Source of the DNA: Acidihalobacter yilgarnensis
GTDB lineage: Bacteria; Pseudomonadota; Gammaproteobacteria; DSM-5130; Acidihalobacteraceae
DNA: 64,000 nucleotides
Assembly (NCBI RefSeq): GCF_001753245.1
Contig: NZ_CP017415.1
Location: 2,570,501-2,634,500, forward strand
Direction of reading: 5' to 3'
Numbering within the stretch: position 1 is the stretch's first letter; each line of letters opens with the position of its first letter. The position numbers and the translations under genes are program-made. This document shows positions 6,983 to 45,006 of this stretch, one piece after another. A model generated the notes under the pieces. That model was not told the DNA's origin and made no database searches. It saw nothing but the letters and a program-made list of their open reading frames with translations.

Positions 6983-8918
<1,936 letters not shown>

Positions 8919-8994: not shown

Positions 8995-10119
8995 TCACTT
9001 CTGCGATGCGACCAAACTCTGATAGAGCCCGTGAATGTCAGCACCGACCCGCCTTGCCGAATAGCGTTCTTGCTGCACTGCTCGTCCACGCTCGCCCATT
9101 TTGCTGCGCAACGCCGCATCACCCGACAATCGCGCCAATTGCGCGGCCGCCCTCGCAGGTTGGCCAGCGGGATAAAGCAGACCACCACCGGAGGCGCCGA
9201 CCAGCTCGCGATGCCCCGTCACATCGCTCGCCACCACCGGCAGGCCCATCGCCATCGCCTCAATCACCGCCAGGGGCAGGCCTTCCCAGCGCGCGGTCGA
9301 TAGATAGATGTCTGCCATTGCCAACAACGGCGCCGAACGCTCCTGCGAGCCCAGAAAACACACGTTATCGAGGCCCTCGGATGTCGCGCGCCGCCTGAGA
9401 CCCGCCGCATCCTCACCATCTCCCGCCCACAGGAACAAAATGTGCGGCGAGGCGGCCACCACCGCGTAAGCTTCCTGCATGTTCTTCTGATAATCGAAGC
9501 GGCTCAGCGTGGCCGCCACGATCCGGTCGTCCGCGATGCCCAATTGCGCACGACCGGATCTGCGCAGGTCGGCGCGTACCGCATCGTCGACATCCTCGAC
9601 GCCGTTGACGATCACACAGGCCCGCGTGCGCGGCCACAGGCCGGCAGTCCGGGCCACCTCGCGCTCCTCGTCGGAAACATAGACCACACTATCGACCCAG
9701 CGCGCGGACAGATTCTCATAGGCCCGATACAGTCGCCGCGCCCAGGGTTTATATTGCGAAACATGCACGCCATGCGGTGTGTGGACGCTGCGACAGCGCA
9801 GCAGCATCGTCGCCAGCCGTGCATAGGCCCCAGCGCCCTTGCCGTGCGCATGGATCAGGTCGATGCGGTTTCGGCGCGCGTAGGCCACCAGTCTCAGCGC
9901 CGCGCCCAGCGTGAAGCGTCGGTGGGGAATCAAAACCACTCGCCCCCCGGTCTCGTATTCTAAGCGTGCGCGATAGGGCGGCTCGTCCGGGCAGGCGACG
10001 TGCGCCTCCACGTCTGCCGGAAGATGTTTGAGCAGGAGTTCGAGATGCCGCGGACCGCCACCGTGATCGGCGCGAACTGTAATCATCAGTACGGAGATTG
10101 GATTTTCTCCATGATTCAT
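8995..10119 (-). CDS. GT4-family glycosyltransferase
   Basis: Predicted 374-residue GT-B glycosyltransferase. It starts with a nucleotide-fold strand and glycine-rich loop (TVRADHGGGPRHLELLL) and later has DLIHAHGKGAG and the donor-site EGLPLAVIEAMAMG, all usual for GT4 enzymes that elongate O-antigen. No membrane segment is evident, so it should act on the cytoplasmic face. Its ATG overlaps the stop of the upstream GT2 gene by four bases (ATGA), showing translational coupling. The donor and linkage cannot be told from sequence. Confidence 0.88.
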   Translation of the reverse strand: MNHGENPISVLMITVRADHGGGPRHLELLLKHLPADVEAHVACPDEPPYRARLEYETGGRVVLIPHRRFTLGAALRLVAYARRNRIDLIHAHGKGAGAYARLATMLLRCRSVHTPHGVHVSQYKPWARRLYRAYENLSARWVDSVVYVSDEEREVARTAGLWPRTRACVIVNGVEDVDDAVRADLRRSGRAQLGIADDRIVAATLSRFDYQKNMQEAYAVVAASPHILFLWAGDGEDAAGLRRRATSEGLDNVCFLGSQERSAPLLAMADIYLSTARWEGLPLAVIEAMAMGLPVVASDVTGHRELVGASGGGLLYPAGQPARAAAQLARLSGDAALRSKMGERGRAVQQERYSARRVGADIHGLYQSLVASQK

Positions 10120-11060
10120 AAAACCCAGTACCAGGCCAGAGTGCGCAATACTCCTTCCTTATGTAAGCCAAGCCGTGCTGCGGATATCCGCCTTTGTAAA
10201 TCGCCTTGGCGCGGCAGGTTCAGTACCGACTCCAGTATTTTTCTTTTCTCGGAAGACATTCGATCAGCATAACGCTGGTACAGCACTTCTGCCTGGGTCA
10301 ATGCCTCCTGCCAGCCCCTGCGAACGCGCCGCTGGACGGCTAAAGGCCCTAAGCGCAGTTTTTTTGCAACGCCTGACATATCCCAGGCTTCCGCACCGAT
10401 GGTATTCGACTCATGCTGGCGATAATCCACCAAAGGCTGAGGCACACAGCGTACTTCACCCAGCGTGTGTGCTACCAAAAGCAACCACCAGTCATGCATC
10501 ACCGCCGCATCTGGTACCGGCAGGGCCACTTCCAGCAAGGCGCGGTTGACCAGCATGGTACAACCCGGCACCGTGTTTTGAATCAATTCACGTTTGAAAT
10601 CTTCACCAGTATGCGATTTAAATCCTTGCCATCTTGATGCCGATGGTGCCAAAACACGCCCGTCCGAATCGATGATACGAGCACCACTGTAAACCAGAGT
10701 GGGTAAGGAACGTCCTTGTTGCTTTTCCAAGCGCTCGGCGCAAGCCACCAGTTCGGCTACCTTGTTTTGGTGCCAGAGGTCGTCTTGATCCGCGAGCAGC
10801 GTGTAGTCGCTGGTACAGTGGGACAATATGCGTCCGAAGTTCGCAGCCGGTCCGAGCGGGCCATCATCATCCATCAGGAATTCGATCGGCATGGCCACCT
10901 TACGCTCGCGTTCAAGGATTGAACAAGTCTCGTCTATCGAACCGTCATCACGAACCTGAATACTGTCTGGCGCCATTGTCTGCCCGGCAATCGAGGCCAG
11001 CAACGCTGGCAAGAATCGGGCGCCGTTGAAAGTGGCTAAGGCGATATCAATGCGACGCAT
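10116..11060 (-). CDS. GT2-family glycosyltransferase
   Basis: Predicted 314-residue GT-A inverting glycosyltransferase, similar in layout to rhamnosyltransferases of O-antigen loci. It begins IDIALATFNGARFLPALL, followed by the QVRDDGSIDET nucleotide-binding block and the metal-binding LLADQDDLW. A conserved acidic/HxW segment (AVMHDWWLLLVAH) follows. The ATG at 11060 (MRRIDIALA) is preferred over an upstream TTG. Its stop overlaps the next glycosyltransferase start (ATGA). Confidence 0.88.
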   Translation of the reverse strand: MRRIDIALATFNGARFLPALLASIAGQTMAPDSIQVRDDGSIDETCSILERERKVAMPIEFLMDDDGPLGPAANFGRILSHCTSDYTLLADQDDLWHQNKVAELVACAERLEKQQGRSLPTLVYSGARIIDSDGRVLAPSASRWQGFKSHTGEDFKRELIQNTVPGCTMLVNRALLEVALPVPDAAVMHDWWLLLVAHTLGEVRCVPQPLVDYRQHESNTIGAEAWDMSGVAKKLRLGPLAVQRRVRRGWQEALTQAEVLYQRYADRMSSEKRKILESVLNLPRQGDLQRRISAARLGLHKEGVLRTLAWYWVL

Positions 11061-11120
11061 ATCTTCTACATGCAAGCTGATGGCAAGCGGGAAAACACCT
11101 TTGGCTTATTCAGCAATGCC

Positions 11121-12953
11121 TTAGACACACTGGCGGAGTGAGGCCCGCTTGGCCGCGAAACAATGCCACCATTCGGCCAGCATGACCACAGCGAACAACA
11201 GCCGCTCGCGGTGTATACCCGCGAGGAGGTCAGAGCCCACAATGTCAGTCAATGTCTCGTGGTCGATGCCCGGAACAGGGCGCTGAGCAAAATACGCACT
11301 GACACCACCCCAGGCACCGAACCATTCACCGATCCAGCGGCGCATTGGCAAGACAAACCCCTGTTTGGGTCGTTGTAGAATATCGTCGGGGAGCCAGCGG
11401 CTCGCCGCACGGCGCAGAGCGACTTTAGAATCTCCGGACATTCGCTCACTCGGCAGCAGCGCCAATCCTAGCGATACAACTCGTGGATCGAGGAAGGGGG
11501 CACGCCCCTCCAAGCTGTGCGCCATCGTCATCCGATCAAACTTGACCAACAGATCATCGGGCAGCCAAGTACCGATATCCGTGACAGTTGCACGTTGCAA
11601 TGGCCCATGCGACCGGCCGATCCAATCGAGCAAATCATTTTCCCAAGGGTTGACGTTGTCGACCATCTCGTGGATCAAACGGTGCCGTTCCGCACAGCCA
11701 GTTAGGAGGGGAAAACCCGATGGTGTTGTCGGCGGGTCGTTGAGCAAAAATCGATCTAGGTGGTCCAGCGGCACGTGCCGCCGGCGAAGTAGTCCGGCCA
11801 ACTTGTCCAATCGGTCACGCCAGCCGGCTGTTGTGGCGAATTGACGATAGTAGTTATAGCCCGCGAAGATTTCATCTGCCCCCTCCCCAGCCAATACGAC
11901 CGTGACATGCTTACGCGCCTCGCGTGCTAACCAATAAACCGGCAAAACAGCTTGGTCACCGATCGGCGTGTCGAGTGCCGCAGCAACTTCCGGAAGTAGC
12001 GTCATAAAATGATTTTGATCAAAGATGAACCTGTGATGGGTGCTGCCAATATGACGAGCAACGGCCGCAGCGTGTGTACTCTCATCAACTTGTGCCTCGC
12101 TGAAGCCCATCGAGAAGGTAGCGATCGCCGGGTTGGCATGAGCTGCAATCGCGGCCACCACTGAACTGTCGATGCCTCCAGAGAGGAACACTCCCACAGG
12201 TACGTCAGCGATAAGGCGTGAGGTAACGGCAACTTCTAATGCTTCGCACAACTCATCGTCAGATATGCGGCGTGAAGCCTCCAGGGGAGGTCTGTAGTAA
12301 CGTTGATGCGTGATCGTCAAGTCACCGAGCCGCACGGTCAGCCGCTCGCCTGGCAGAACCTGGCGTATCCCAGAAAAAATGGTAGACCGACCTGGAACAA
12401 AATGGAGCGCCAGATAACTGTCAAGGGCCTGCGGGTCAAACTCATCTGTCACCCAAGGCAGCGCCGACACAGCCAGTAACGTCGAGCCATAGCCAAATCG
12501 ACCAGGAGCTGCGGTATAGAACAGCGGCTTCTCGCCAAAACGGTCGCGGGCGAGATGTAGCTCGCCGGAATCGCGGTCATGAATAGCTATGGCGTACATA
12601 CCATCGATGCGAGCCAGCAACCCGTCTATGCCCCAACACGCATATCCATGTGCGAGCGCTTCTGTGTCGCTGCGTGTTTTAAAGACATATCCAGCTGCCT
12701 CTAATTCAGAGCGCATTTCATGATGATTGTATATTTCACCGTTCTGGAAAACGACTACCCTTCCCTCACGGCTGAGCAACGGTTGCCTTCCATGTGTCAG
12801 ATCAATGACTGATAGCCGCCGCATGCCCATATGCACGGAGCCGTCGTGGTGTTGGCCGTCACCATCTGGACCGCGATGGTACATACTAGCAAGGAGAGGC
12901 GGAAGCAGTTCATCGCCGAGGCCATCACCAACGTAACCAAAAATTCCACACAT
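11121..12953 (-). CDS. asnB: asparagine synthase-like glutamine amidotransferase
   Basis: A 610-residue class II glutamine amidotransferase joined to an AsnB-type synthetase domain. Cys2 is the glutaminase nucleophile (MCGIFGYVG), and the ATP-pyrophosphatase loop is SGGIDSS. Later motifs AGEGADEIFAGYNYY and LLVKFDRMTMAHSLEGRAPF are intact. Copies inside polysaccharide clusters often amidate uronic-acid sugars rather than make free asparagine (WbpS-type); that role is inferred here from context. The start overlaps the stop of the giant glycosyltransferase gene by one base (TAATG), so they are co-translated. Confidence 0.9.
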   Translation of the reverse strand: MCGIFGYVGDGLGDELLPPLLASMYHRGPDGDGQHHDGSVHMGMRRLSVIDLTHGRQPLLSREGRVVVFQNGEIYNHHEMRSELEAAGYVFKTRSDTEALAHGYACWGIDGLLARIDGMYAIAIHDRDSGELHLARDRFGEKPLFYTAAPGRFGYGSTLLAVSALPWVTDEFDPQALDSYLALHFVPGRSTIFSGIRQVLPGERLTVRLGDLTITHQRYYRPPLEASRRISDDELCEALEVAVTSRLIADVPVGVFLSGGIDSSVVAAIAAHANPAIATFSMGFSEAQVDESTHAAAVARHIGSTHHRFIFDQNHFMTLLPEVAAALDTPIGDQAVLPVYWLAREARKHVTVVLAGEGADEIFAGYNYYRQFATTAGWRDRLDKLAGLLRRRHVPLDHLDRFLLNDPPTTPSGFPLLTGCAERHRLIHEMVDNVNPWENDLLDWIGRSHGPLQRATVTDIGTWLPDDLLVKFDRMTMAHSLEGRAPFLDPRVVSLGLALLPSERMSGDSKVALRRAASRWLPDDILQRPKQGFVLPMRRWIGEWFGAWGGVSAYFAQRPVPGIDHETLTDIVGSDLLAGIHRERLLFAVVMLAEWWHCFAAKRASLRQCV

Positions 12954-15900
12954 TACTCGCTATCTCCGTTTGTGGCCATGCCGAAATTCAGAGCCAGTTC
13001 TCGCGATCGGCTGAAACGCGCTTCGAGAAAAATTTGTCCATATTTCTCGATCATCTCGTGATATGTGGTTAGACCACTTAACACCGTACGACTTGCAATT
13101 GAGAATGCCGCGCGCCGCTCGTCATCCTCCACAAGGGATGTGAGCGCATCAGCCAAGGCTTTAACGCTGCCTGGTTCGTAGATTAAAGCATTGACATTAT
13201 CCTGAACCTGTTCACGTATACCGAATACTGGTGTGGTAATTAACGGTAGGCCGCAAGCCATTGCCTCTAGAATTATGCGCGGGTAGCTTTCGATACGAGA
13301 AGTACATAGGGCAATATCCGCAACTCGGTAATAGCGCGGAACCTCGCCGGTCTCCGGTTCCACTACCAGCCTTTCACGTAGCTCACCCGGCATGCGCTCA
13401 ATTTCCAGATGCATTGCTGTGCTGTAGTCTCCGGCACGATCGCCTATGATAAAAACGCGCAATCGATTGACAATCTGCGGCGACAGGATCTGCAGCGCAC
13501 GCAGGAGATCAATTTGCCCTTTGCGGTCACAAACTGTACCCACCAGCACTACGGCGACCTCGTCAGGTTTAATGCCGAGCGCGCGACGAGCCTCCATCCG
13601 ATCAATGGCAGCGAGTCTTGTTTCGATGCGGTTTATATCTAGCCCGTTGTGAATAACTGTAAAATTGAAGCATTGCTCGACCGGAGCCCACGCTCGGCGT
13701 GTAGCATGGGCGACGAAAATTACACGGTATGGCAGTGCGAAACATTTATAGGCAATATCGCGTAGATCAGGCATTAGAAAATCGAAATAGGTTTCCCAAG
13801 GCTCACTTTCGCGTGGATTCCATATTGTAGGCAAGCCAGCTCGTTCGCCGGCTTCAATTGCCCAGAAGGTTTGAAGTGTATTCGCGTAAACTACTTCAGT
13901 ATCCAAATCACGCAAAATATCGGCTAATTCGCTTTGTCGAACCTCGAACGCGTCGCGCGTATGTATATTCTCTAATGGCAGCTTAATAATACGTACTTCG
14001 ATACCAGCTTCCGCATAATAAACTCGTAATGGCCCGTCGACAGGAGACAACACAATTGGATCAATAATCCCCATCTTAGCAAGACCAACAATCAACTCTA
14101 ATTGGCTGTTTGGTGCTCCCTCGTTATTGAGATTATGCGTCACCATGACTGCGCGGACTGGCCGCGTGATATGTGCGGGCTTATGATAAGGACGCACGCG
14201 GAAATGCTCATCATCGAGAGACAAATTCAGGTTAAACCAAGGGTCAGTTCGCCTGCTGTAATGCTCACGGAAATTTGCGACTTCACGTGGCTCATCATTA
14301 AAACCACGGCTCTTACCCTCAAAGTGGAAGAGCTCAGCCCCGGGCGCATATATGCAACGCCTGCCGGAATCGACTACACGATAGCAATAGTCAACATCGT
14401 TGTAAGCTACAGCGAAATTTTGCTCATCAAGGCCACCAAGTTCCAGGTAAAGTGCACGTGGTGTCAAAAGACATGCGGCGGTTACGGCGGAACATTCGCG
14501 TGCCACGACAGCATAGTCGAGATAACCATTATCCCACAATGGCGCGTTGCGAAATGCCGGACCCGCCATGCCGCCGTAAAAGCCGTGAACGATTCCGGCG
14601 TGCTGCACTGTCTTGTCGCCAAATAAGAGACGAGCCCCAACGACACCAACATTCTCCATAAGAGAATAGCCCATCATCTGAGATAGCCATTCCGGCGTGC
14701 GTACCTTAGTGTCATTGTTCAGAAGTAGCACATAGTCTCCATCTACCTGCTTAACCGCCGTATTGTTGATATATGCAAAATTAAATCGTCCATTTGGCGG
14801 GTTGGCAATATGCAACACTCGGTGAGGTAGGGTAGCGAGATAGGCTAATGTCTCAGGATCGTCACTCGCATTATCGATAATGACTACTTCGTAATTTTTG
14901 TACGTCGTTTGTTTCAGAGATAAGACACAGTTACGTAAGAGTTCGGTATTATTTCTGGTTGGAATGATAATGGAAACTTTTGGACCACTGTCTGGAAAGC
15001 GCAAGGAATAGACGCCACATCTAGCATCGATCGCCCATTGCGGCTGTATTACGTCGGCCTTGATCCCGCGGCGTTCTAACGCTTCAGCAACTGCTCGGCG
15101 GCCAGCATCAAAACTTGCCGGCTTAGCATCACCGGACGCAGCGGTAGAGCCAGGTACAACTCGCCAGTGGTATAGCACTTTCGGCACATGCATGATTCGT
15201 TGCGTTCGCTCACTTATGCGCAGCGCGAAATCATAGTCCTGCGCGCCCTCAAAGCCGACGCGAAAGCCGCCGAAATCTAGGAACAGCGATCGGCGCACCA
15301 CCTTGACGTGACCCATGTACATGTATGAGAGGAGTAACGTTGGCGACCAATCCGGCTTAAATTGTGGAGAGAATCTCCGACCCTCCTTATCGATCTTGTC
15401 GTCATCGCTGTAAACATAGTCTGTGTCCGGTGCATCAGCCACGGTAATCGCTATTTCAGCCAATGCATCTGCGCTCAGCTCGTCATCGTGGTCAAGGAAG
15501 GCAAGAAATCCGCCAGAGGCCAGACTAGCTGCAGCGTTAGTGGCGCGGCTGATATTACCGTTCTTTGCGCAGAAGAAGACCTTTATTCTTGTATCCCGCT
15601 GAGACCATGCCTCGAGCGCTAGAACTGTACGTTCATCATTGCTGGCATCATCCGCAATGCATAATTCCCAATCTTCATAAATCTGTTTAAGCACGCTGCC
15701 GATGGCGCGGTCGAGCAGGTGGACCGGTGTGTTGTAGGTCGGCATAATCACTGAGATGCGCGGCAAACGTTCTTTTCGCGCATCCAGAGCAGCACATAGT
15801 GTGTCCTTCTCCTCGCGGCTAAGAGTATTGAAACGCAGCCATGCGGCATATCGGGTTGGGCATGTCTCCGATTTGATGTGGCCCCTGATCGCCGTCTTTC

Positions 15901-17791
15901 CATGCCCCGTCGACTCTATAGCACTGAAGATTTTTTTGGCAGCGAGTCGCAAGCGCGGTCTAAAACTCGCCGGCAATGGGATGGTTCGATACACTTTCCG
16001 AGAGGTACGGTAAACGAGTGATCGATTTTCTGAATCAGGTTCTTGTAGCTTGGCTCTTACATTGCGTAAAACCGTAATCGTCTTACGCAGCGGTTTAGTA
16101 ACTCGCCAGGACCTTGATTTTAGTATCCCGGCTAACTGCGTCTTGGCCTGTTCGGCTTCTGCCTTGGCCTGTTCGGCTTCTGCCTTGGCCTGTTCGGCTT
16201 CTGCCTTGGCCTGTTCGGCTTCTGCCTTGGCCTGTTCGGCTTCTGCCTTGGCCTGTTCGGCTTCTGCCTTGGCCTGAATCACCAACCGGCTTTGTTGGTA
16301 GACCGCTCCCCGTAAGGCTGAAGACGCCCGCGCATCTAGTTGGGAAAGCTTGGCAAAAACATCCGGGAGGTGTTTCCCCACCTGCAGAACCCCCAATCCG
16401 TGGCTATGGAAAAACTGAAATGAGGGATATTTATTTTCCAGTTCAGACCAAAACTTCCACACACCGAAATCGTCGTGCCTCACGACAGTGTCGTGAAAGA
16501 GCACAACGGCTTTAGCGCTTAGTTTCGGCAACCAGGATTCAAAATCGTGCTTGACAGCTTCGTAGGTATGAAGACCATCGATATGAAGCAGGTCAATGTT
16601 GCCGTTTTCGAAAAAAGCCGATGCTTCATCAAAGGTTTTCCGCAAAAGTTCAGAAAACTGCGAATAACGCGAATCGTGATAATTTTTCAGCTCTGAATAG
16701 ATTTCATCTCCGTAAAAGCCTGCCTGGTGATCGCCTTCCCAGGTATCGACTCCGTAGCACCTCGTATTCAGATTAAAGCTTTGAGCGGCTTGGCAGAAGG
16801 CTGAATACGAATCGCCTTTGTGCACCCCCAGTTCGACGAACACTGCTGGCTTAACGGCTTGCATGATGACCGGCACAAAGCACAAATGTCCGCGCCATGA
16901 TTGAACATCAGTCAGCCTCTCAGGAATGAAGCCAACCGCAGGCGCTAGCAGTGGGCGTATTCTTTCTAAAGGATCATTGAGTTGCACGGCTCGCTGAGCG
17001 ATAAACGCCTTGAATTCATCTGAAGCAGTAGGCCCTTGTTCTCTTAGCGCATCTTTTAGTGAATTGATTTCGGGATCGGGAAGATTTGAGCGATTTTCTC
17101 GTATGACACCGACACCAGGCAGGTGTTGCAGACCAATCAAAGCAGCAAAATCGTCGATAACATCGTGAGAATAGGCACGTACAAAAACATTCTCGGTACC
17201 AGCCGCCCGTTCGTAGTTACCAACCAATCTGGCGTAATTGAAATCTTGAAAGCAGGGAAGTGCATCCCGGAGATGGTAGCTTTTTGCCTTGGTAATTTCG
17301 GAAACAAAATTTCTGGGATCCGTTTTACACCTCAATTCGTCAAGCGAGGCATTCTCAGTAACATCCTGAAATGATAGCTGTTTCTTGTATTCCCCATGCA
17401 AAGATACGCCATAATCGATGGGATCTCGCAGATACACGATCAGGTTTACTTGGTAATCATTTTTTCTGAATTCATCCAAAAACGACTTAAGCACATCCGG
17501 TTTATTCGAAACGCAACCGAAGTCTTCGGAGGAAAGGATTACAGATTCATGACAGATCGACGAAAGTTCATCAAACAGCTCGCGCCGTGTACCATATGCT
17601 TCCGAAAATCGCGGGTCACCACTGAGCTCCCAGGCCAAGTTGTGGTGTCCGCTCGTGTTCTGAAATGGGCGCCCCATCTGTGGAACCAGCACGCCCACAT
17701 CAAGCAGCATCGCGCTCTGCTCATGCAGCCATTTTTGTATGGACGTAGTTCCTGTCTTATGCGTGCCGACGTGCAGGTAGAGTGTTTTCAT
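12953..17791 (-). CDS. five-domain sulfotransferase-methyltransferase-GT2-GT2-GT4 protein
   Basis: A 1612-residue cytoplasmic polypeptide. Residues 1-260 are sulfotransferase-like: the PAPS loop HKTGTTSIQ (11-19) and the LRDPIDYGVS segment near 121. Residues 310-440 form a class I methyltransferase of the Methyltransf_24/CmcI type (VELGVHKGDSYS, HIDGLHTYEAV, LFHDT). Residues 507-550 are heptads of sequence AEAEQAK, a predicted coiled coil. Residues 678-890 are a GT2 domain (VIMPTYNTP, DHDDE), 938-1180 a second GT2 (IIIPTRNN, LLLNNDT), and 1211-1595 a GT4 domain with ESYPRIILEAM. I infer it both elongates and caps the O-antigen. Base composition looks lower in G+C than its neighbours, suggesting transfer. 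The gene is bounded by wzt (4 bp) and asnB (overlap). Confidence 0.88.
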   Translation of the reverse strand: MKTLYLHVGTHKTGTTSIQKWLHEQSAMLLDVGVLVPQMGRPFQNTSGHHNLAWELSGDPRFSEAYGTRRELFDELSSICHESVILSSEDFGCVSNKPDVLKSFLDEFRKNDYQVNLIVYLRDPIDYGVSLHGEYKKQLSFQDVTENASLDELRCKTDPRNFVSEITKAKSYHLRDALPCFQDFNYARLVGNYERAAGTENVFVRAYSHDVIDDFAALIGLQHLPGVGVIRENRSNLPDPEINSLKDALREQGPTASDEFKAFIAQRAVQLNDPLERIRPLLAPAVGFIPERLTDVQSWRGHLCFVPVIMQAVKPAVFVELGVHKGDSYSAFCQAAQSFNLNTRCYGVDTWEGDHQAGFYGDEIYSELKNYHDSRYSQFSELLRKTFDEASAFFENGNIDLLHIDGLHTYEAVKHDFESWLPKLSAKAVVLFHDTVVRHDDFGVWKFWSELENKYPSFQFFHSHGLGVLQVGKHLPDVFAKLSQLDARASSALRGAVYQQSRLVIQAKAEAEQAKAEAEQAKAEAEQAKAEAEQAKAEAEQAKAEAEQAKTQLAGILKSRSWRVTKPLRKTITVLRNVRAKLQEPDSENRSLVYRTSRKVYRTIPLPASFRPRLRLAAKKIFSAIESTGHGKTAIRGHIKSETCPTRYAAWLRFNTLSREEKDTLCAALDARKERLPRISVIMPTYNTPVHLLDRAIGSVLKQIYEDWELCIADDASNDERTVLALEAWSQRDTRIKVFFCAKNGNISRATNAAASLASGGFLAFLDHDDELSADALAEIAITVADAPDTDYVYSDDDKIDKEGRRFSPQFKPDWSPTLLLSYMYMGHVKVVRRSLFLDFGGFRVGFEGAQDYDFALRISERTQRIMHVPKVLYHWRVVPGSTAASGDAKPASFDAGRRAVAEALERRGIKADVIQPQWAIDARCGVYSLRFPDSGPKVSIIIPTRNNTELLRNCVLSLKQTTYKNYEVVIIDNASDDPETLAYLATLPHRVLHIANPPNGRFNFAYINNTAVKQVDGDYVLLLNNDTKVRTPEWLSQMMGYSLMENVGVVGARLLFGDKTVQHAGIVHGFYGGMAGPAFRNAPLWDNGYLDYAVVARECSAVTAACLLTPRALYLELGGLDEQNFAVAYNDVDYCYRVVDSGRRCIYAPGAELFHFEGKSRGFNDEPREVANFREHYSRRTDPWFNLNLSLDDEHFRVRPYHKPAHITRPVRAVMVTHNLNNEGAPNSQLELIVGLAKMGIIDPIVLSPVDGPLRVYYAEAGIEVRIIKLPLENIHTRDAFEVRQSELADILRDLDTEVVYANTLQTFWAIEAGERAGLPTIWNPRESEPWETYFDFLMPDLRDIAYKCFALPYRVIFVAHATRRAWAPVEQCFNFTVIHNGLDINRIETRLAAIDRMEARRALGIKPDEVAVVLVGTVCDRKGQIDLLRALQILSPQIVNRLRVFIIGDRAGDYSTAMHLEIERMPGELRERLVVEPETGEVPRYYRVADIALCTSRIESYPRIILEAMACGLPLITTPVFGIREQVQDNVNALIYEPGSVKALADALTSLVEDDERRAAFSIASRTVLSGLTTYHEMIEKYGQIFLEARFSRSRELALNFGMATNGDSE
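16142..16276. repeat. six perfect 21-bp tandem repeats plus a partial unit
   Basis: The unit cttggcctgttcggcttctgc occurs six times without a mismatch (16142-16267) and a 9-bp partial copy follows. It lies in frame in the giant glycosyltransferase gene, and each unit encodes one seven-residue heptad (AEAEQAK). Because the unit is 21 bp, gain or loss of copies keeps the frame and the coiled-coil register. Perfect identity argues for recent slippage or conversion. Confidence 0.97.
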
Positions 17792-17795
17792 GAAT

Positions 17796-18542
17796 TCAAT
17801 TTGTAGTGGTTGATAGAATTGGAGCCAGTTCTCCGACTTCGCCTACGTCTACGACGCTTCCGTGCTCCATACGAATATATCGATCACAAAACTGTGCGAC
17901 CTGATTCTGTTGATGCGACACAAACAAAAGCGTCATCCCTCCCTTACGCATTTCCTCGATACGAGACAAGCATTTTAGCTGGAAATCAGCGTCACCCACG
18001 GAGAGGATTTCGTCGGCGAGTAAGATTTCGGGATCGAGATGCACCGCAACCGAGAATCCCAGGCGGGCATACATGCCGGAGGAATAGTTCTTCACCGGCT
18101 CGTAGATGAAGTCGGCTAGCTCCGAGAATTCGAGAATCTTCGGATACAGCGCCCGCGTCTCACGGTTCTTGAGGCCGAACAGGCTGGCATTGAGGTAGAT
18201 GTTTTCCTCTCCGGTCAGCTCAGGGCTGAAGCCGACACCCAGGGCGATCATCGGCACCAGACGGCCGTGGGTGATGATACGCCCGGATGTGGGCGGATAG
18301 ATGCCAGCAATGAGGCTGAGCAGGGTGCTTTTGCCCGAGCCGTTGAGGCCCATCAGGCCCAGCGCCTCGCCGCGCTCGACGGTGAAAGAGACGTCATCGA
18401 CGGCGCGAAATGTGTGCGGCCTCGGTCGCCAGCGTTTGTGCATCAAACCTACAATCCGTTTCTTGAGGGTATCCTGGGCATTGTGGTGCAGCACGAAATC
18501 TTTGCTTACACTCTCAACAATGATCGCCGGATCTCCGCTCAT
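17796..18542 (-). CDS. wzt: polysaccharide ABC transporter ATPase
   Basis: ATP-binding subunit (248 residues) of an O-antigen/teichoic-acid-type exporter working with the permease at 18539. Walker A is GLNGSGKST, the signature is NYSSGMYARLGF and Walker B is ILLADEILSVGD, all as in Wzt/TagH proteins. It lacks the C-terminal carbohydrate-binding domain found in long Wzt proteins such as that of E. coli O9a, ending shortly after the ATPase fold. ATG 18542 overlaps the permease stop by four bases (ATGA), which settles the start over the longer frame. Confidence 0.93.
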   Translation of the reverse strand: MSGDPAIIVESVSKDFVLHHNAQDTLKKRIVGLMHKRWRPRPHTFRAVDDVSFTVERGEALGLMGLNGSGKSTLLSLIAGIYPPTSGRIITHGRLVPMIALGVGFSPELTGEENIYLNASLFGLKNRETRALYPKILEFSELADFIYEPVKNYSSGMYARLGFSVAVHLDPEILLADEILSVGDADFQLKCLSRIEEMRKGGMTLLFVSHQQNQVAQFCDRYIRMEHGSVVDVGEVGELAPILSTTTN

Positions 18543-19339
18543 AGCCGCTCGATCAGCTGTGCGCCACGGCGATAGAACAAGCTCAATCCGATAGCCAAAG
18601 ACAGCGCCGTCCAACCGGCAAACGCCGCGGTGATCTTCCATGAGGGTATGAGATTCTCCCAGAACAGGCTTTGGAAAATCAGGGAAAATTCAGCGAACGG
18701 GCTTACCTTCATGAGGGTCTGGATGAGCGAGTGGTGGATGCGGCTGATCGGATAGACAATCGGCGTCGCCCAGAACAGCAACTGGATGAAGACCTCGACC
18801 AGATGCTTGATGTCACGAAAATCCACATACAGCACGCTGAGCGTCAGCATGATGCCAAATGTGAAGCCGAAAAACAGCAGCAAGTAGAACGGATACAACA
18901 GCAGTCCCAGATGCCATGTTCCACCCAACGGGACATACAGTATCAACATGATCCCTAGCGCCATTAGCCAGAGCGTGGCATTGACCAGCATGTTCGAAAA
19001 TGGCACGAGCAGCCGAGGGAAATAAATTTTCTTCAACAGACCCGCATTGCTCACCAACAACTCGGAACTTTGCATCACCAGCATAGAAAACAGGTTCCAG
19101 TGGATGATGCCAACGACCATGAACAACGGATAATGCGGCAGGTTCGAGGGAAACACATAGGTGAATACCACCAAGTACATCAAGGTAATCATCAAAGGAT
19201 TCATCAGCGACCAAGCGAAGCCGAGCACCGCCCCCTGATAACGAATCTTAATTTCCTTGGAAACAAGGTTGCGAACCAGATCGCGGTAGGACCACCAACG
19301 CCTGAATGCCTCCAAAGGGGCCTGTGCCAACACGGTCAT
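18539..19339 (-). CDS. wzm: polysaccharide ABC transporter permease
   Basis: A 266-residue inner-membrane protein of the ABC-2 type (Wzm/TagG), forming the export channel for undecaprenyl-linked glycan with the ATPase coded immediately downstream. An N-terminal amphipathic stretch (YRDLVRNLVSKEIKIRY) precedes QGAVLGFAWSLMNPL, the usual Wzm opening, and about six membrane helices follow. The 4-bp overlap with wzt makes a coupled pair. It is the first gene of the run after a 418-bp gap, so a promoter probably lies upstream. Confidence 0.93.
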   Translation of the reverse strand: MTVLAQAPLEAFRRWWSYRDLVRNLVSKEIKIRYQGAVLGFAWSLMNPLMITLMYLVVFTYVFPSNLPHYPLFMVVGIIHWNLFSMLVMQSSELLVSNAGLLKKIYFPRLLVPFSNMLVNATLWLMALGIMLILYVPLGGTWHLGLLLYPFYLLLFFGFTFGIMLTLSVLYVDFRDIKHLVEVFIQLLFWATPIVYPISRIHHSLIQTLMKVSPFAEFSLIFQSLFWENLIPSWKITAAFAGWTALSLAIGLSLFYRRGAQLIERL

Positions 19340-21958: not shown

Positions 21959-23425
21959 CTACGATTTACTTGTCGCGCGCGCTGTTTTAATCCGCAGTGC
22001 AGTGAGCACACGGTCACGTAGCGCCAAGGGCGACACATACCATGATGCAATCAGGGACACGGCCAGTGCCAGCAACCCTACGATCAGCTTCGGTATCAGG
22101 CCGATCGGCGCCAACGCGGACCACACGGCCATCATGATCGCTGGGAAATTAGGCAGAATCGCCTTCCAGTAAAGACCCAGCGTACGCGTCGCAACAAAAC
22201 AAAATATCGCGTCCGCTGTGCTTCTGACGACCCAGGCGATGCCAGCCCCGACGATCCCCCATTGTCCCACCAAGACCCATAACAGCGCCAGGAACGGCAG
22301 CAGTTCAGCCACGTAAAATTTGGCCATCAGGTCCGGCCGTCCTTGTGCTGGCATGTAGACATTGGGCACGTAGGCCGGGCCATTGATCCAGATGCCAACC
22401 AATAGCACAATGGCAATTGGCACCATCTTGACCGCCATCTCATTCCCTAGCCATAACTGGAAAAAAGGCTGCGTCAGCACAACTCCAAGCACGACGACCG
22501 GCGTCTGGAGCGCCACCAACCCAAGTATGCTCTGATGCATGAGTCGTTCTGCGCTCTCACCCCTGAGCTGAGAGAATTTCGGAAATAATGTGGTCGCAAG
22601 ACTCAGGGGAATGTATGTCACTCGCTGGGTCAATGAAAATGGAACCGTATACGCCGTCACTGCCGCTGCACCCAACTGGACTCCAATCACCATGCGATCA
22701 ACAATGGTCAACAGTGGGATCAGCATACCGGACAGACTAATCCAACCACCGAATCGCAACAAGGACGCGATTTCGCCTCGCTGCATTCGCGGTGCTCCGA
22801 ATATCGGCAATGCTCGCACGACCGCCCAGTAGATGAAGACCAGACCCGTCAGCCGCCCGAACAAGGCAGATGACACAAGCGCAGACATACTGGCATGACC
22901 CATGGCGACCCAAATCAATGGGAATACCTGCAGAGCGATCGAACCAATGGCTTGGCCTGCGTTCAATGCAATGAAGGCTTGTTTCGCCTGCAGCGTGCCG
23001 GTGAGCACTGACAGGGTGGAGACCAGTGGCACTGTCATGGCCAACCAAGGGATAGAATCCACCACCTGGGTATGATATTCAGGGGGTATACGGAACACCC
23101 CAGCAAAAAGCCAGTGACCGAGCGCATAAAGGACGAGACCGCCGATCAGGCCAACGCTCAAGCCGAAAGTCAACGCGGTCCAGAAAGTACGATTGTTCTC
23201 GACCACGTCCTCCTGCCCCGCCACACGCTGCGCCACTGCGCGCCCTAGGCCAAAGTCGAAAGCGCCGAAGTAACCCAGCATGGTGAACGCGAGGAGCAGC
23301 ACACCATACTTCACTTCGCCGACCCAGTGCAGATACAACGGCACCGTAGCCAACGCCACGAGCGTCGGGACAACCTGACCGATCAGATTGATCACCGTCG
23401 ACCGGATAACACCACGACTACTCAT
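21959..23425 (-). CDS. Wzx-type polysaccharide flippase
   Basis: A 488-residue integral membrane protein of the MATE/MOP flippase superfamily, with 12 or more hydrophobic segments. It opens with VINLIGQVVPTLVALATVPLYL, the usual first helix of oligosaccharide flippases, and GYFGAFDFGLGRAVAQ follows in the second. Wzx proteins move single undecaprenyl-linked repeat units across the inner membrane. Its presence beside a complete ABC exporter is notable because the two routes are normally alternatives. Substrate unknown. Confidence 0.88.
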   Translation of the reverse strand: MSSRGVIRSTVINLIGQVVPTLVALATVPLYLHWVGEVKYGVLLLAFTMLGYFGAFDFGLGRAVAQRVAGQEDVVENNRTFWTALTFGLSVGLIGGLVLYALGHWLFAGVFRIPPEYHTQVVDSIPWLAMTVPLVSTLSVLTGTLQAKQAFIALNAGQAIGSIALQVFPLIWVAMGHASMSALVSSALFGRLTGLVFIYWAVVRALPIFGAPRMQRGEIASLLRFGGWISLSGMLIPLLTIVDRMVIGVQLGAAAVTAYTVPFSLTQRVTYIPLSLATTLFPKFSQLRGESAERLMHQSILGLVALQTPVVVLGVVLTQPFFQLWLGNEMAVKMVPIAIVLLVGIWINGPAYVPNVYMPAQGRPDLMAKFYVAELLPFLALLWVLVGQWGIVGAGIAWVVRSTADAIFCFVATRTLGLYWKAILPNFPAIMMAVWSALAPIGLIPKLIVGLLALAVSLIASWYVSPLALRDRVLTALRIKTARATSKS

Positions 23426-25731: not shown

Positions 25732-26610
25732 TCACTCGGCCGCCCTCGCAGCCGCCGTTTCCCTCAAGACCTCGTGCAAGGCCTCGCGCCAATGAGGTGC
25801 CGCGCCGCCCAGTGCCGTCCAGGTCTCGTGCTTGTCGAGGACACTGTACGGCGGTCGCTGTGCGGGGGTGGGATATTCAGCGGTGGTGATCGGGCGAATG
25901 GGGATTGTGCGGTCGAGCAGCCCCAGCGCGAATGCCTCATCGCGAATCGCGAGCGCAAAGTCGTACCAGGAAGCGACGCCAGCATCAGTCCAGTGATGCG
26001 TGCCGCCGAGACCGACGCCGATCATGGACCAAATGGCCACGGCCAGCCCGCTCGCGCAGGTGGGGGTGCCGACCTGATCATCCACTACGCCGAGCTGGTC
26101 GCGCTCGCGCATCAGTCGCAGCATCGTGCGCACGAAGTTGTTTCCCAGTGGCGCATACACCCAGGCGGTGCGCACGATCAGTGCGTCCGCACCCAGCCGC
26201 TCACGCACAGCGACCTCGCCTGCCAGCTTGCTCGCACCATAAACACCGAGCGGCGCGGTGGCGTCATCCGGGCGGTAGGGTCGGCTGCATTGGCCGTCGA
26301 AGACAAAGTCGGTGGAAACCTGGACGAGGCGCACGCCCTGCGCTTGCGCGGCAGTGGCGAGGTGACGGGGACCGTCGGCGTTGATGGCAAAGGCTAGGTC
26401 CGGCTCCGCCTCGGCGCGATCCACTGCGGTATAGGCCGCCGCGTTGATGATCCAGTCCGGCGCCGTCTCGCGTGCCGTCTCGCGTACGGCCGTGGCGTCG
26501 GTGATGTCCAGCTCGGCACGCGTTAGCGCGGTCACCTCGATGTCTGGCGGCACACTCGCACGCAGCGCCCGGCCGAGCTGACCGTCGGCGCCTGCGATGA
26601 GCACCTTCAC
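25732..26610 (-). CDS. rmlD: dTDP-4-dehydrorhamnose reductase
   Basis: Last enzyme of dTDP-L-rhamnose synthesis, 292 residues, reducing dTDP-4-keto-rhamnose with NAD(P)H. The N-terminus MKVLIAGADGQLGRAL carries the Rossmann motif; VSTDFVFDG and the catalytic GVYGASKLAGE follow, as in RmlD. It overlaps rmlC by four bases. The downstream gene is the MntA/HepT pair, 140 bp away, rather than rmlB. Normal length and complete motifs. Confidence 0.95.
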   Translation of the reverse strand: MKVLIAGADGQLGRALRASVPPDIEVTALTRAELDITDATAVRETARETAPDWIINAAAYTAVDRAEAEPDLAFAINADGPRHLATAAQAQGVRLVQVSTDFVFDGQCSRPYRPDDATAPLGVYGASKLAGEVAVRERLGADALIVRTAWVYAPLGNNFVRTMLRLMRERDQLGVVDDQVGTPTCASGLAVAIWSMIGVGLGGTHHWTDAGVASWYDFALAIRDEAFALGLLDRTIPIRPITTAEYPTPAQRPPYSVLDKHETWTALGGAAPHWREALHEVLRETAAARAAE

Positions 26611-27155
26611 GGATAGACCTCCGCCTCACGCAGCCGCGCACCCTCGGCGTCCTTGGCGGACACCAGCGGCGTTGCATGGGTCGGAATGAACCAGTCGATG
26701 CCTAGATCAGGGTCGTTCCAGCGGATGCAGCGCTCAAGTTCTGGGGCATAGAATTCGGTGCATTTGTAGACGAAATCTGCCTTTTCGCTGAGCACGTAGA
26801 ATCCATGGCCGAAACCGGGCGGCACCCACAACATGCGCTGGTTCTCGTCGCTCAGCTCGATACCGAACCATTGCCCGAAGCGGGGCGAGGAACGTCGCAG
26901 GTCGACGGCCACGTCGAACACGCGTCCGGTGACGACGCGTACCAGCTTGCCCTGCGGCCGCTCGAGCTGATAATGCAGGCCGCGCAGGATGCCTTGACGC
27001 GAGCGGCTGTGGTTGTCCTGCACGAATTCGGCATCGATGCCGCCCTCACGGAACTTGGACGCGTGCCAGGTTTCCAGAAAAAAACCGCGGGCATCGCCGA
27101 AGACATCCGGTTCGACGACCACGACCTCGGGTAGCACAGTCGGGAGGAAGCGCAT
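26607..27155 (-). CDS. rmlC: dTDP-4-dehydrorhamnose 3,5-epimerase
   Basis: Cupin-fold epimerase, 182 residues, acting between RmlB and RmlD. Diagnostic segments are VVEPDVFGDARGFFLETW, ILRGLHYQLE with the catalytic histidine, and WVPPGFGHGFYVLSE. It overlaps rmlD by four bases and touches rmlA by one base, so the three genes form a tightly coupled rmlA-C-D block. Confidence 0.96.
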   Translation of the reverse strand: MRFLPTVLPEVVVVEPDVFGDARGFFLETWHASKFREGGIDAEFVQDNHSRSRQGILRGLHYQLERPQGKLVRVVTGRVFDVAVDLRRSSPRFGQWFGIELSDENQRMLWVPPGFGHGFYVLSEKADFVYKCTEFYAPELERCIRWNDPDLGIDWFIPTHATPLVSAKDAEGARLREAEVYP

Positions 27156-28024
27156 CAGGCGGTCTCAATCAGGCGTTGCAGATAGGCGCCATAACCGTTC
27201 TTACGCAACGGCTCGGCCAGGCGAGCGAGCTGTTCGGCATCGATATAACCCAATCGCCAAGCGATCTCCTCCGGGCAGGCAATTTTGAGCCCCTGCCGTT
27301 TTTCGACCACCTCGATAAAATTGGCCGCCTCCAGCAGCGACTCGTGCGTGCCGGTATCCAGCCAGGCGGTCCCGCGCCCAAGCGGCGTGACGGTCAGCCC
27401 GCCTTCAGCCAGATAGTGGCGATTGATGTCGGTGATCTCCAGCTCTCCGCGCGCGGAGGGACGGATACCCTGGGCAATCTCGACCACCCGTGCATCGTAG
27501 AAATACAGCCCGGTAACCGCATAGCTAGAGCGTGGCGCGACGGGCTTTTCCTCGATATCAAGCGCCTTGCCATCGCCGTCGAAGCTGACCACGCCATAAC
27601 GCTCGGGGTCGTTGACGTGATAGGCGAACACATGCCCGCCACGCTCCAGGCGCGCGGCATCCTGTAGCTGACGGCCGAGACCGGGGCCGAAGAACAGATT
27701 GTCGCCGAGGATCAGGGCGACCGGAGCGCCATCGATGAAGGTCTCACCGATGAGGAAGGCCTGCGCGAGTCCGTCCGGCGAGGGCTGTTCGGCATAATTC
27801 AGCGACAACCCCCACTGCGAACCGTCGCCCAGCAGGGTTTGAAAGCGCGGCAGGTCGGCCGGCGTGGAGATGATCAGGATCTCGCGTATCCCCGCCAGCA
27901 TCAGCGTCGACAGGGGGTAGTAGATCATCGGCTTGTCGTAGACCGGCAGCAGCTGCTTGCACACCGCATGCGTCAGCGGGTAAAGCCGCGTGCCGGAACC
28001 GCCGGCGAGGATGATGCCCTTCAT
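27155..28024 (-). CDS. rmlA: glucose-1-phosphate thymidylyltransferase
   Basis: First enzyme of dTDP-L-rhamnose synthesis, 289 residues, making dTDP-glucose from dTTP and glucose-1-phosphate. The nucleotide-binding N-terminus is [38 protein letters not shown] and [12 protein letters not shown] are RmlA hallmarks. It is the most upstream rml gene on the minus strand, so a promoter should lie in the 113 bp before it, although I could not define one. Length is standard. Confidence 0.96.
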
Positions 28025-29073: not shown

Positions 29074-29619
29074 ATGGCAACAAAAAAGAACAACCCCAGC
29101 TGGAGCGACGTCAAAACCAAGCTGGCAGACTTCGACCGCGCCGGCTTGCTTGGCCTGGTGCAAGACCTCTACGCAGCCAGCAAGGACAACCAGGCCTTCT
29201 TGCACGCTCGCTTTGGGCTGGGCGACGATGTTCTGAAACCCTACAAGGCCACCATCGACAGCTGGCTGTGGCCCGATGTGTTCGAGAACCAGGACACCTC
29301 GGTCGCCAAGGCCAAGAAAGCGATTACGGACTACAAGAAAGCTGTAGGGCAAACCGACGGGCTGGCAGAACTGATGGTGTTCTATTGCGAGTGTGCTGCT
29401 GGTTTCAGCAACGATATTGGCCTGCAGGACGAAGGTTACTTTGATGCGCTGGTGCGAATGTTTGAGCAGGCATTGAAGACCATTGCGGCCCTGCCCAACA
29501 CGACGCGACCGGCCCTCTTGGAGCGCCTGGATGATGTTCGACGCATCAGCCACAACTTTGGTTATGGCGTGGGCGACGACATGGATGAATTGCTGGCTGA
29601 GCACGGGGTCGATGACTGA
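29074..29619 (+). CDS. unknown protein coupled to primase-helicase
   Basis: A 181-residue, charged, probably all-helical soluble protein without a family I recognise. It starts MATKKNNPSWSDVKTKLADF and ends ISHNFGYGVGDDMDELLAEH; a helix-rich middle has YCECAAGFSNDIG. No signal peptide or membrane helix is seen. Its 3' end overlaps the primase-helicase start by 8 bp, so the two are translated together. That coupling suggests a partner or adaptor role in the same conflict system. No function is claimed. Confidence 0.75.
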   Translation: MATKKNNPSWSDVKTKLADFDRAGLLGLVQDLYAASKDNQAFLHARFGLGDDVLKPYKATIDSWLWPDVFENQDTSVAKAKKAITDYKKAVGQTDGLAELMVFYCECAAGFSNDIGLQDEGYFDALVRMFEQALKTIAALPNTTRPALLERLDDVRRISHNFGYGVGDDMDELLAEHGVDD

Positions 29620-36729: not shown

Positions 36730-36760
36730 TTTGAAGCCTGACGCTCACCGGCCAGACGAC

Positions 36761-44514: not shown

Positions 44515-44550
44515 CGGTGATATGCTACCACAATTACTTAGGGCGCAAGC

Positions 44551-45006
44551 ATGGAAAGCAATAATAAATCGAGTTCTCACGCAGTATTTAACATTAAGCT
44601 ACATATCGTCTTTGTCACGAAGTATCGCCGCAAAACACTCGCGCCAGAACTATTGGAATACCTCGAAACCGCTTTTGGCGAAATACTTGAAGGATGGCGT
44701 TGCAAGTTAATTGAATTCGGCGGCGAACTCGACCATATATATCTCCTGGTTGATATCCATCCGGCACTGGATATATCGGTACTGATCAACAACCTCAAGA
44801 CCGCAAGCGCGCGTCGAACCCGGAACCGATTTGCCGAACATCTTGCACCGTTCTACCACAAACCGCTGTTCTGGCACCGGGCTTACTTCGTAGGCTCGGT
44901 GGGCGGCGTGACGCTTGAAACGATTCGGGCCTACGTGGAGGCCCAGGGAACGGAAGAACACGTACACAAGGCCAAAGCCAAGTCAAAAACCAAGTCGTCC
45001 GCTTGA
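44551..45006 (+). CDS. tnpA: TnpA transposase, HUH motif altered
   Basis: A 151-residue Y1 transposase of IS200/IS605. It starts with a disordered leader, then NIKLHIVFVTKYRRK, the standard first strand. The catalytic tyrosine Y128 (RAYVEAQ) is present. The metal-binding pair, normally H-x-H, reads DHIYLLV (H62, Y64): the codon TAT replaces a CAT. This should impair metal binding and strand cleavage. The gene is otherwise full length. It shares a short promoter region with tnpB. Confidence 0.88.
   Translation: MESNNKSSSHAVFNIKLHIVFVTKYRRKTLAPELLEYLETAFGEILEGWRCKLIEFGGELDHIYLLVDIHPALDISVLINNLKTASARRTRNRFAEHLAPFYHKPLFWHRAYFVGSVGGVTLETIRAYVEAQGTEEHVHKAKAKSKTKSSA

What the first reader, a model, noticed from the sequence alone, without database searches (positions are those of the whole stretch)
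12953..17791. One protein joins sulfotransferase, methyltransferase, coiled coil and three glycosyltransferase domains
The 1612-residue product carries two possible cap-forming domains (sulfo, methyl) at one end and three polymer-making domains at the other, joined by a heptad coiled coil. In the E. coli O9a system a methyltransferase-kinase (WbdD) caps the chain, and its coiled coil is a ruler that sets O-antigen length relative to a separate polymerase. Here the same logic may be fused into one chain. The domain order is seen in the sequence; the ruler idea is inference.
Basis: partly seen in the sequence, partly recalled or inferred. Interest (0 to 1): 0.88.

Follow-up and report, generated by a model that had tools for sequence, protein, structure and literature searches.

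The report
Fused sugar-chain builder, capper and ruler
One bacterial protein joins two likely chain-capping enzymes, a rod made of exactly repeated DNA units and three sugar-adding enzymes; the fused builder-ruler-capper layout is already known, but a sulfate-adding enzyme in the capping position and a rod whose repeat number differs between species look new.

Summary
The 1612-residue frame is real. Pfam confirms a methyltransferase (MT) and three glycosyltransferase (GT) domains. The sulfotransferase (ST) part has no Pfam or NCBIfam hit; its profile reaches a solved sulfotransferase weakly, and its fold model failed.

One-chain polymerase-ruler-terminator proteins are in print (Klebsiella O12 WbbB, O7 ORF6), so the fusion is not new. 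Not found in my searches: (1) sulfotransferases in the terminator slot. In the 5 family genomes searched, the cap-coil-SRSWRxTxPLR protein near wzm-wzt carries ST-MT (two), another ST family (two) or another MT (one). That second ST family stands before a coil in 27 of 37 chosen frames, 21 of 27 with a GT after it; a modelled member's 10 PDB hits at E <= 0.001 are all sulfotransferases. (2) The coil is a perfect 21-bp array: 6.4 copies here, 4.1 and 8.8 in two relatives.

Against: this Wzt lacks the cap-reading domain, and the genome has none. Capping, sulfation and length control are untested.

The parts
12953..17791 (-). 1612-aa fusion protein: ST-MT-coil-SWR-GT2-GT2-GT4
   Evidence: frame; Pfam
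16982..17791 (-). residues 1-270, sulfotransferase-like domain (P-loop HKTGTTS, YLRDPxxxxVS)
   Evidence: no Pfam or NCBIfam hit; profile hit to 3rnl sulfotransferase E 0.0016; profile-profile to the second ST family, probability 84%; fold not modelled
16322..16942 (-). residues 284-490, class I methyltransferase (Methyltransf_24)
   Evidence: Pfam 8.5e-26; model pLDDT about 79-98, nearest solved fold MeT1 6g80/6g7d
16118..16333 (-). residues 487-558, heptad (AKAEAEQ) helical rod, about 10.7 nm if one helix
   Evidence: helix 487-582
16142..16276 (.). perfect 21-bp tandem array, 6.4 copies, one heptad per unit
   Evidence: 100% match; 6 exact copies, and no other place in the genome with fewer than 3 mismatches
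16085..16117 (-). SRSWRVTKPLR motif at the polymerase-side end of the rod, start of an amphipathic stretch
   Evidence: motif in 25 of 936 frames of the fetched loci, 0 of 936 shuffled; rod-like stretch before it in 14 of 25, after it in 2 of 25; helical moment 0.55
15017..15856 (-). first GT2 domain (residues 646-925)
   Evidence: Pfam PF00535, best stretch 680-810
14192..15016 (-). second GT2 domain (residues 926-1200)
   Evidence: Pfam PF13641 937-1161
12992..14176 (-). GT4 domain (residues 1206-1600)
   Evidence: Pfam PF00534 1398-1568
17796..18641 (-). Wzt-like ABC ATPase, 281 aa, without Wzt_C domain
18539..19339 (-). Wzm-like ABC permease
   Evidence: PF01061
11121..12953 (-). asparagine-synthase-like amidotransferase, next gene downstream
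8995..11075 (-). separate GT2 and GT4 genes
6983..8918 (-). GDP-mannose 4,6-dehydratase family pair (GDP-deoxyhexose precursor genes, inferred)
25732..28024 (-). rmlD, rmlC and rmlA-like genes (dTDP-rhamnose precursor, inferred)

Best explanation
This is a one-chain polymerase-ruler-terminator for a polysaccharide exported by the neighbouring Wzm-Wzt transporter, most likely an O-antigen. The GT domains at the membrane end extend the lipid-linked chain. [quoted passage not shown] There it is methylated and/or sulfated on the last sugar, which stops growth. The rod is encoded by 21-bp units, so each gained or lost unit adds or removes one heptad (about 1 nm) without breaking frame or register; repeat number would therefore set modal chain length. 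Shown: domain order, predicted helix, repeat array, transporter neighbourhood, different cap domains in relatives. Inferred: enzyme activities, that they cap rather than decorate, O-antigen identity, ruler action, and that copy number varies within a species.
For: Pfam domains and order. Continuous predicted helix 487-582, pLDDT 84-98 up to about residue 560 and lower beyond. A cap-coil-SWR protein in the wzm-wzt locus of all 5 family genomes searched (G000-G004), with different caps: ST-MT in the window and G002; a second ST family in G003 and G004 (broken frame in G004); another MT in G001, where a 460-aa frame lies between it and wzt. Farther out: a stand-alone ST-MT-coil-SWR behind wzm-wzt in G159, followed by a separate GT2 gene; FkbM-type MT-coil-SWR in G338 (about 0.8 kb from wzt) and G330, and an unclassified domain with an ST-like P-loop plus coil and SWR in G129, each with a Wzt that has Wzt_C. 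The second ST family: of 37 chosen frames 27 are N-terminal ST plus coil, 21 of 27 with a GT after it; its profile reaches solved sulfotransferases at best 1.2e-5; model of one member pLDDT 83.8, and all 10 PDB hits at E <= 0.001 are sulfotransferases, at query TM-scores of 0.29-0.45. Four of 19 Wzt-like proteins in these loci hit Wzt_C (one below the curated cut-off). PAPS supply: two strong APS-kinase matches in the genome. Array: 6.4, 4.1 and 8.8 copies in three species; units nearly identical within an array but 1-3 of 21 bases different between species. Literature: terminators sit at the far end of the coil in the Klebsiella cases; coil length sets chain length in O9a.
Against: The Wzt here has no cap-reading domain and none exists in the genome; 15 of the 19 Wzt-like proteins scanned lack it too. 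The ST domain of the window has only remote support and no usable model. Two cap enzymes in one chain leave the order and need of each unclear; in G002 the MT motif HIDGLH reads HIGGLH, so its MT may be inactive. Association of ST-coil frames with wzm-wzt is incomplete: 8 of 27 immediately adjacent, 11 of 27 within about 19 kb, against 0 of 9 without coil (Fisher p 0.16, not significant). A Wzx-like gene at 21959-23425 means a second export route is possible. The rod (about 11 nm) is about half the roughly 20 nm reported for WbdD. My coil rule does not flag G002's stretch before SWR. Copy-number difference has been seen between species only, one genome each.
Confidence: 0.5

Rival explanations
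1. The MT and ST domains decorate internal repeat units (or a side branch) rather than cap the chain; the coil only tethers them to the polymerase, and length is set by the balance of polymerase and transporter, as recalled for ABC systems whose Wzt lacks a cap-reading domain.
For: Wzt without Wzt_C. A capsule with sulfate on a repeat-unit rhamnose, from a cluster with ABC-transporter genes, is known in Cobetia (PMC11766843, abstract and passages). The A. salmonicida O-antigen cluster has an ST gene next to wzt, and no sulfate was found in its structure (PMC4483657, passages).
Against: Domain order matches published terminators with the enzyme at the far end of the coil; cap domains of different chemistry fill the slot that MTs fill; ST-coil proteins also occur with a Wzt that has Wzt_C.
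Confidence: 0.27
2. Ordinary multi-domain glycosyltransferase of the widespread MT-coil-GT2-GT2(-GT4) type (WsaE-like); the N-terminal domain is an inactive or unrelated P-loop domain, and the perfect repeat is a chance recent expansion in alanine-rich coding DNA.
For: MT+GT2+GT2 in one frame in 13 of 57 scanned loci, 4 of them with GT4, from several phyla; no Pfam or NCBIfam hit for residues 1-270; repetitive DNA is a general hazard of coils.
Against: ST motif residues kept in relatives at 56-65% identity. Tandem arrays in 9 of 32 ST-linked coils against 1 of 113 other frames with a coil-like stretch in the same loci (Fisher 3.9e-6); without the three proteins that prompted the test, 6 of 29 (p 0.0003). 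The control stretches are shorter (5100 aa in 147 pieces against 3387 aa in 52) and partly spurious.
Confidence: 0.18
3. The protein makes a glycan other than O-antigen (capsule, exopolysaccharide or a protein-linked glycan).
For: Relatives of the GT part occur in Gram-positive Cohnella and Paenibacillus, which by recalled knowledge have no LPS; no ligase was sought here.
Against: wzm-wzt and dTDP-rhamnose/GDP-deoxyhexose genes nearby fit an O-antigen locus but do not prove it.
Confidence: 0.25

Closest known systems
ORF6 of Klebsiella pneumoniae O7 (PMC11231755)
   Same: N-terminal methyltransferase, central coil and two GT2 polymerase modules in one chain, beside wzm-wzt
   Different: has a kinase and a predicted carbohydrate-binding module and makes a methyl-phosphate cap; no sulfotransferase; the window protein adds a GT4 and a 21-bp array; this Wzt lacks the cap-reading domain
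WbbB of Klebsiella O12 (PMC11231755, passages; the PNAS 2017 paper seen only in its reference list)
   Same: terminator, coil and two polymerase GTs in one chain
   Different: the terminator adds beta-Kdo
WbdD of E. coli O9a/O8 (PMC3482155, passages; PMC5082667, passages)
   Same: cap enzyme at the N-terminus, coil as ruler, membrane-side end; the O8 form is a methyltransferase only
   Different: the polymerase WbdA is a separate protein; no sulfotransferase; separation about 200 A
WsaE of Geobacillus stearothermophilus (PMC3898925, passages)
   Same: chain-terminal methyltransferase domain joined to sugar transferase activities, with an ABC transporter
   Different: no sulfotransferase or ruler mentioned in the passages seen; the partner WsaF is separate
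NeuO of E. coli K1 (PMC3046976, passages)
   Same: glycan-modifying enzyme with a variable number of heptad-coding repeats that changes its output
   Different: 7-bp units that also switch frame; N-terminal, not a rod between two enzymes

Membership tests
Coiled-coil terminators of ABC-exported polysaccharides (WbdD/WbbB/O7 ORF6 kind) | Terminator enzyme at the end of the coil away from the polymerase | tested here: inconclusive
   the order is right, MT (and ST-like) before the coil and GTs after it, but that they terminate is untested
Coiled-coil terminators of ABC-exported polysaccharides (WbdD/WbbB/O7 ORF6 kind) | Extended coiled coil | tested here: inconclusive
   continuous helix 487-582 in a single-chain model; oligomer not modelled; repeat core positions would be alanine, so a single stable helix is not excluded
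Coiled-coil terminators of ABC-exported polysaccharides (WbdD/WbbB/O7 ORF6 kind) | wzm-wzt in the same locus | tested here: met
Coiled-coil terminators of ABC-exported polysaccharides (WbdD/WbbB/O7 ORF6 kind) | Wzt with a cap-reading C-terminal domain | tested here: not met
   absent from this Wzt and from the genome; present in 4 of 19 Wzt-like proteins, so I say it works like this kind, not that it is a member
Coiled-coil terminators of ABC-exported polysaccharides (WbdD/WbbB/O7 ORF6 kind) | Chain length changes with coil length | not testable with these tools
   needs LPS ladders
WbbB | N-terminal beta-Kdo transferase | tested here: not met
   N-terminus is ST-like plus Methyltransf_24; no glycosyltransferase match before residue 670 among the Pfam families listed
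O7 ORF6 | Kinase and carbohydrate-binding domains between methyltransferase and coil | tested here: not met
   the MT runs straight into the helix
PAPS sulfotransferases, window domain (residues 1-270) | 5'-phosphosulfate P-loop and 3'-phosphate RxPxxxxxS-type motif | tested here: met
   sequence and alignments; motif roles recalled
PAPS sulfotransferases, window domain (residues 1-270) | Sulfotransferase fold | tested here: inconclusive
   profile hit 3rnl 0.0016; model pLDDT mostly under 50
PAPS sulfotransferases, second family in relatives (GMHRSGTS) | Sulfotransferase fold | tested here: met
   model of the L197 member: all 10 PDB hits at E <= 0.001 are sulfotransferases (query TM 0.29-0.45); from rank 11 on, weaker hits include P-loop kinases PFKFB
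WsaE | Sequence homology to WsaE | not tested
   no WsaE sequence in hand; similarity of layout only

The most novel reading that the evidence does not exclude
Sulfate is an unrecognised chain terminator for ABC-exported bacterial polysaccharides, widespread in Gammaproteobacteria as sulfotransferase-coil(-polymerase) proteins, and in this family the ruler is a variable tandem repeat that lets lineages retune surface-chain length one heptad (about 1 nm) at a time without breaking the gene.
Probability: 0.35. Interest if true: 0.82.

Novelty: new variant of a known kind. Interest (0 to 1): 0.62.

Why it matters
The terminators named in the papers read here are methyl, methyl-phosphate and Kdo. 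A sulfate-capping class would add a new terminal group and a testable prediction for many unassigned loci; one published ST gene beside wzt was left unexplained (A. salmonicida). A ruler made of exact repeats would offer natural length variants for testing how coil length maps to chain length, which in the passages seen was shown by insertions and truncations of the WbdD coil.

Tried and rejected
Rejected: fusion as the novelty (already published). Rejected: an ST found only in the window; it is in G002 (64-65%) and G159 (56-57%). The class-wide search with the window ST matched 18 of 369 genomes at E <= 0.001, the own genome included; apart from G159 these are short or weak matches. G002 was not among the rows shown there and was found. 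No ST was found in the 57 genome-contig loci, some of which are cut by contig ends. Rejected as unproven: significant linkage of ST-coil frames to wzm-wzt (p 0.16). G001's GT among flagellar genes, where I first looked in that genome, is a different place from its wzm-wzt locus. Viral-contig relatives of the window ST: none confirmed. Viral-contig relatives of the second ST family: 71 loci, mostly in frames of about 180-280 aa; one, L197, has ST, a coil-like stretch and SWR behind a weak Sulfatase match in a 703-aa frame.

Literature searches: searches returned 1, 0, 2, 11, 39, 3, 0, 5, 4 and 24 papers; of the 39 and the 24 only 10 each were listed. For most listed papers I saw the title and the start of the abstract only; none of these, nor any passage read, describes a sulfate terminator or a tandem-repeat ruler. 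'Not found in print' means not found in these searches; a review of the field (JBC 2020, recalled) is not held.

Selection and heuristics: one search matched 49 of 369 genomes (65 listed places, the own genome and several coil-only matches among them). I fetched 36 loci, chosen mainly by score and frame length, and used L100, fetched before; weaker places were left out. Two of the fetched places had a stop codon inside the match (G252, G060). The coil detector is a home-made composition rule; it does not flag the broken-frame coil of G004 or the stretch before SWR in G002. One of the 19 'Wzt-like' proteins (L192) is an ABC exporter with its own membrane domain, and one (L184) is cut by the locus end.

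Full report
OBSERVATION. The frame at 12953-17791 (-) encodes 1612 residues. Pfam finds Methyltransf_24 (319-435), two GT2 domains and a GT4 domain. Residues 1-270 match none of the 21 Pfam families listed up to E 10 and nothing in NCBIfam when scanned alone. The sequence shows a P-loop HVGTHKTGTTS and a YLRDPxxxxVS motif, which by recalled knowledge are the two PAPS-binding motifs of sulfotransferases. A profile of 9 sequences, window included (A1), finds the solved sulfotransferase 3rnl at E 0.0016, in two weak pieces. Profile-profile comparison with a second, better-supported sulfotransferase family gives probability 84% and, with its viral-contig set, 65%. So the ST reading is likely but not proven for this domain.

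ROD. Residues 506-550 are encoded by 6.4 copies of an identical 21-bp unit; six exact copies lie here, and the only other place in the genome within 3 mismatches has 3. AlphaFold on residues 1-606, with 31 MT relatives as further rows, gives the MT at pLDDT about 79-98 and a single helix from 487 to 582, at 84-98 up to about residue 560 and lower after. The ST part is mostly below 50; it had no relatives in the alignment. The MT model is nearest to MeT1 of Mycobacterium hassiacum (6g80, 6g7d; that MeT1 acts on a sugar is recalled). Immediately after the rod comes SRSWRVTKPLR. A loose form of this motif occurs in 25 of 936 non-overlapping frames of the fetched loci and in 0 of 936 shuffled ones; a rod-like stretch precedes it in 14 of 25 and follows it in 2 of 25. 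The loci were chosen as relatives, so this is not a genome-wide rate.

SURROUNDINGS. Directly upstream are wzt and wzm. Downstream are an asparagine-synthase-like gene, a GT2, a GT4 and GDP-mannose-dehydratase-type genes, then a GT4 and an initiating sugar transferase. Farther upstream are a GT4, a methyltransferase, a Wzx-like gene and rmlA, rmlC and rmlD-like genes. This fits an O-antigen locus (inference). The Wzt is 281 aa without Wzt_C, and the genome has no Wzt_C match at all (the same search rings in 2 of 14 control genomes). The genome has two strong APS-kinase matches.

RELATIVES. A genome scan returned 57 loci. MT, GT2 and GT2 lie in one frame in 13 of these, with GT4 in 4, from several phyla by record title; none of the 57 shows the ST domain. 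Three proteins found here have ST-MT: the window; G002 of the same genus, ST-MT-short coil-GT2-GT2, 1334 aa; and G159, ST-MT-coil-SWR ending there, behind wzm-wzt and followed by a separate GT2 gene. In the two members of another genus of the family, the gene behind wzm-wzt is a different P-loop sulfotransferase (GMHRSGTS) joined to the same kind of 21-bp-coded coil and SWR: G003 with 4.1 copies and G004 with 8.8 copies. In G004 the ST is not in one frame with the SWR part, which continues in a second frame into a GT4-type domain; phase change, decay and sequencing error cannot be told apart. In G001 (same genus) the wzm-wzt locus has another methyltransferase with a short coil and SWR, separated from wzt by a 460-aa frame and followed by a separate 1226-aa protein with GT4-type domains. 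So all 5 of the 5 family genomes searched carry a cap-coil-SWR protein in the wzm-wzt locus, with three kinds of cap.

A SECOND ST FAMILY. A search of 369 genomes of the class with the G003 protein matched 49, some only through the coil. I fetched 36 loci (chosen mainly by score and frame length) and added L100. Of 37 frames, 27 have an N-terminal ST followed by a coil, 21 of these 27 a GT after that; 1 has an internal ST with a coil; 9 have no coil. Across all 44 ST-hit frames of that set, 31 pass the coil rule in the 300 aa after the ST, against 49 of 282 random 300-aa stretches of other frames (the rule is crude). Pfam on 36 of these proteins: GT2 in 24, Sulfotransfer_3 in 17, Sulfotransfer_1 in 5. 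The profile finds aryl sulfotransferase 1cjm at 1.2e-5. The model of one member (L197) has mean pLDDT 83.8; its 10 PDB matches at E <= 0.001 are all sulfotransferases, human TPST2 with PAP first, with query TM-scores of 0.29-0.45; from rank 11 on, weaker matches include PFKFB kinases, which share the P-loop (recalled). The frame lies directly behind wzt in 8 of 27 and within about 19 kb of wzm-wzt in 11 of 27, against 0 of 9 for coil-less frames; this is not significant (p 0.16). Four of 19 Wzt-like proteins hit Wzt_C: L162, L176, L189 and L190, the last below the curated cut-off. L162, L189 and L190 directly precede the ST-coil gene; L176 is about 1 kb away. In G129 an unclassified domain with an ST-like P-loop, coil and SWR also lies behind a Wzt with Wzt_C (Pfam finds nothing in that protein).

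REPEATS. Tandem DNA arrays fall in 9 of 32 ST-linked coils against 1 of 113 other frames with a coil-like stretch (p 3.9e-6). Without the window, G003 and G159 proteins, which prompted the test, it is 6 of 29 (p 0.0003). The control stretches are shorter. Periods are 21, 33, 42, 63, 84, 96 and 129 bp. The units differ at 2 of 21 positions between window and G003, 3 between window and G004 and 1 between G003 and G004, while copies within each array are nearly identical. That pattern is expected if arrays turn over after species part. It is between-species evidence, one genome each.

MECHANISM. Published work shows that a terminator beyond a coil stops growth once the chain spans it, and that coil length sets chain length in O9a (PMC5082667 passages; PMC11231755 passages and part 1 of the Discussion). 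By analogy the window protein polymerises with its GT modules and caps with MT and/or ST. The spacer from cap end to SWR is 68 residues here (about 10 nm as one helix) and 44 to 542 among the ten SWR-bearing proteins measured, so predicted chain lengths differ widely.

NOVELTY. The fused layout is known. Sulfotransferase in the terminator slot, and a ruler built of an exact repeat whose copy number differs among relatives, were not found in the ten searches listed under Tried and rejected. The nearest hints are an unexplained ST gene between wzt and wbbB in A. salmonicida and the variable heptads of NeuO. I therefore call it a new variant of a known kind.

Noticed in passing
L096 9156-13160 (G002): The MT motif HIDGLH reads HIGGLH in the same-genus relative, while the D is invariant among the 32 MT sequences of A6; its MT may be inactive, leaving ST as the only cap.
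   Followed up: partly
L097 5800-8257 (G004): The ST-coil gene is split by a frame change at the 21-bp array; the ST frame stays open across the array and the SWR frame continues into a GT4-type domain. Phase switch, decay or sequencing error.
   Followed up: partly
window 16085-16117 and 24 other frames: A short motif S-x-S-W-R-x-T-x-P-L-R follows coils in proteins of different makeup and phyla; it may be a common membrane or polymerase dock.
   Followed up: partly
L176 3007-7755: ST-coil-GT protein with about 540 residues between cap and SWR, about 1 kb from a Wzt with Wzt_C.
   Followed up: partly
L197 2762-4870: Contig of the viral collection: 703-aa frame with a weak Sulfatase match, then ST, a coil-like stretch and SWR.
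   Followed up: partly
window 29483-31990 (+): 835-aa frame with a TOTE conflict-system primase-like domain and helicase domains.
   Followed up: no
window 43063-44580 and 45962-47101 (-): Two IS605 OrfB/TnpB-type proteins 1.4 kb apart.
   Followed up: no
window 36731-37873 (+): 380-aa open frame without Pfam match.
   Followed up: no
L101 8050-12663 (-) (G001): A large protein related to the GT2 part lies among frames that look flagellar by eye, possibly flagellin glycosylation.
   Followed up: no
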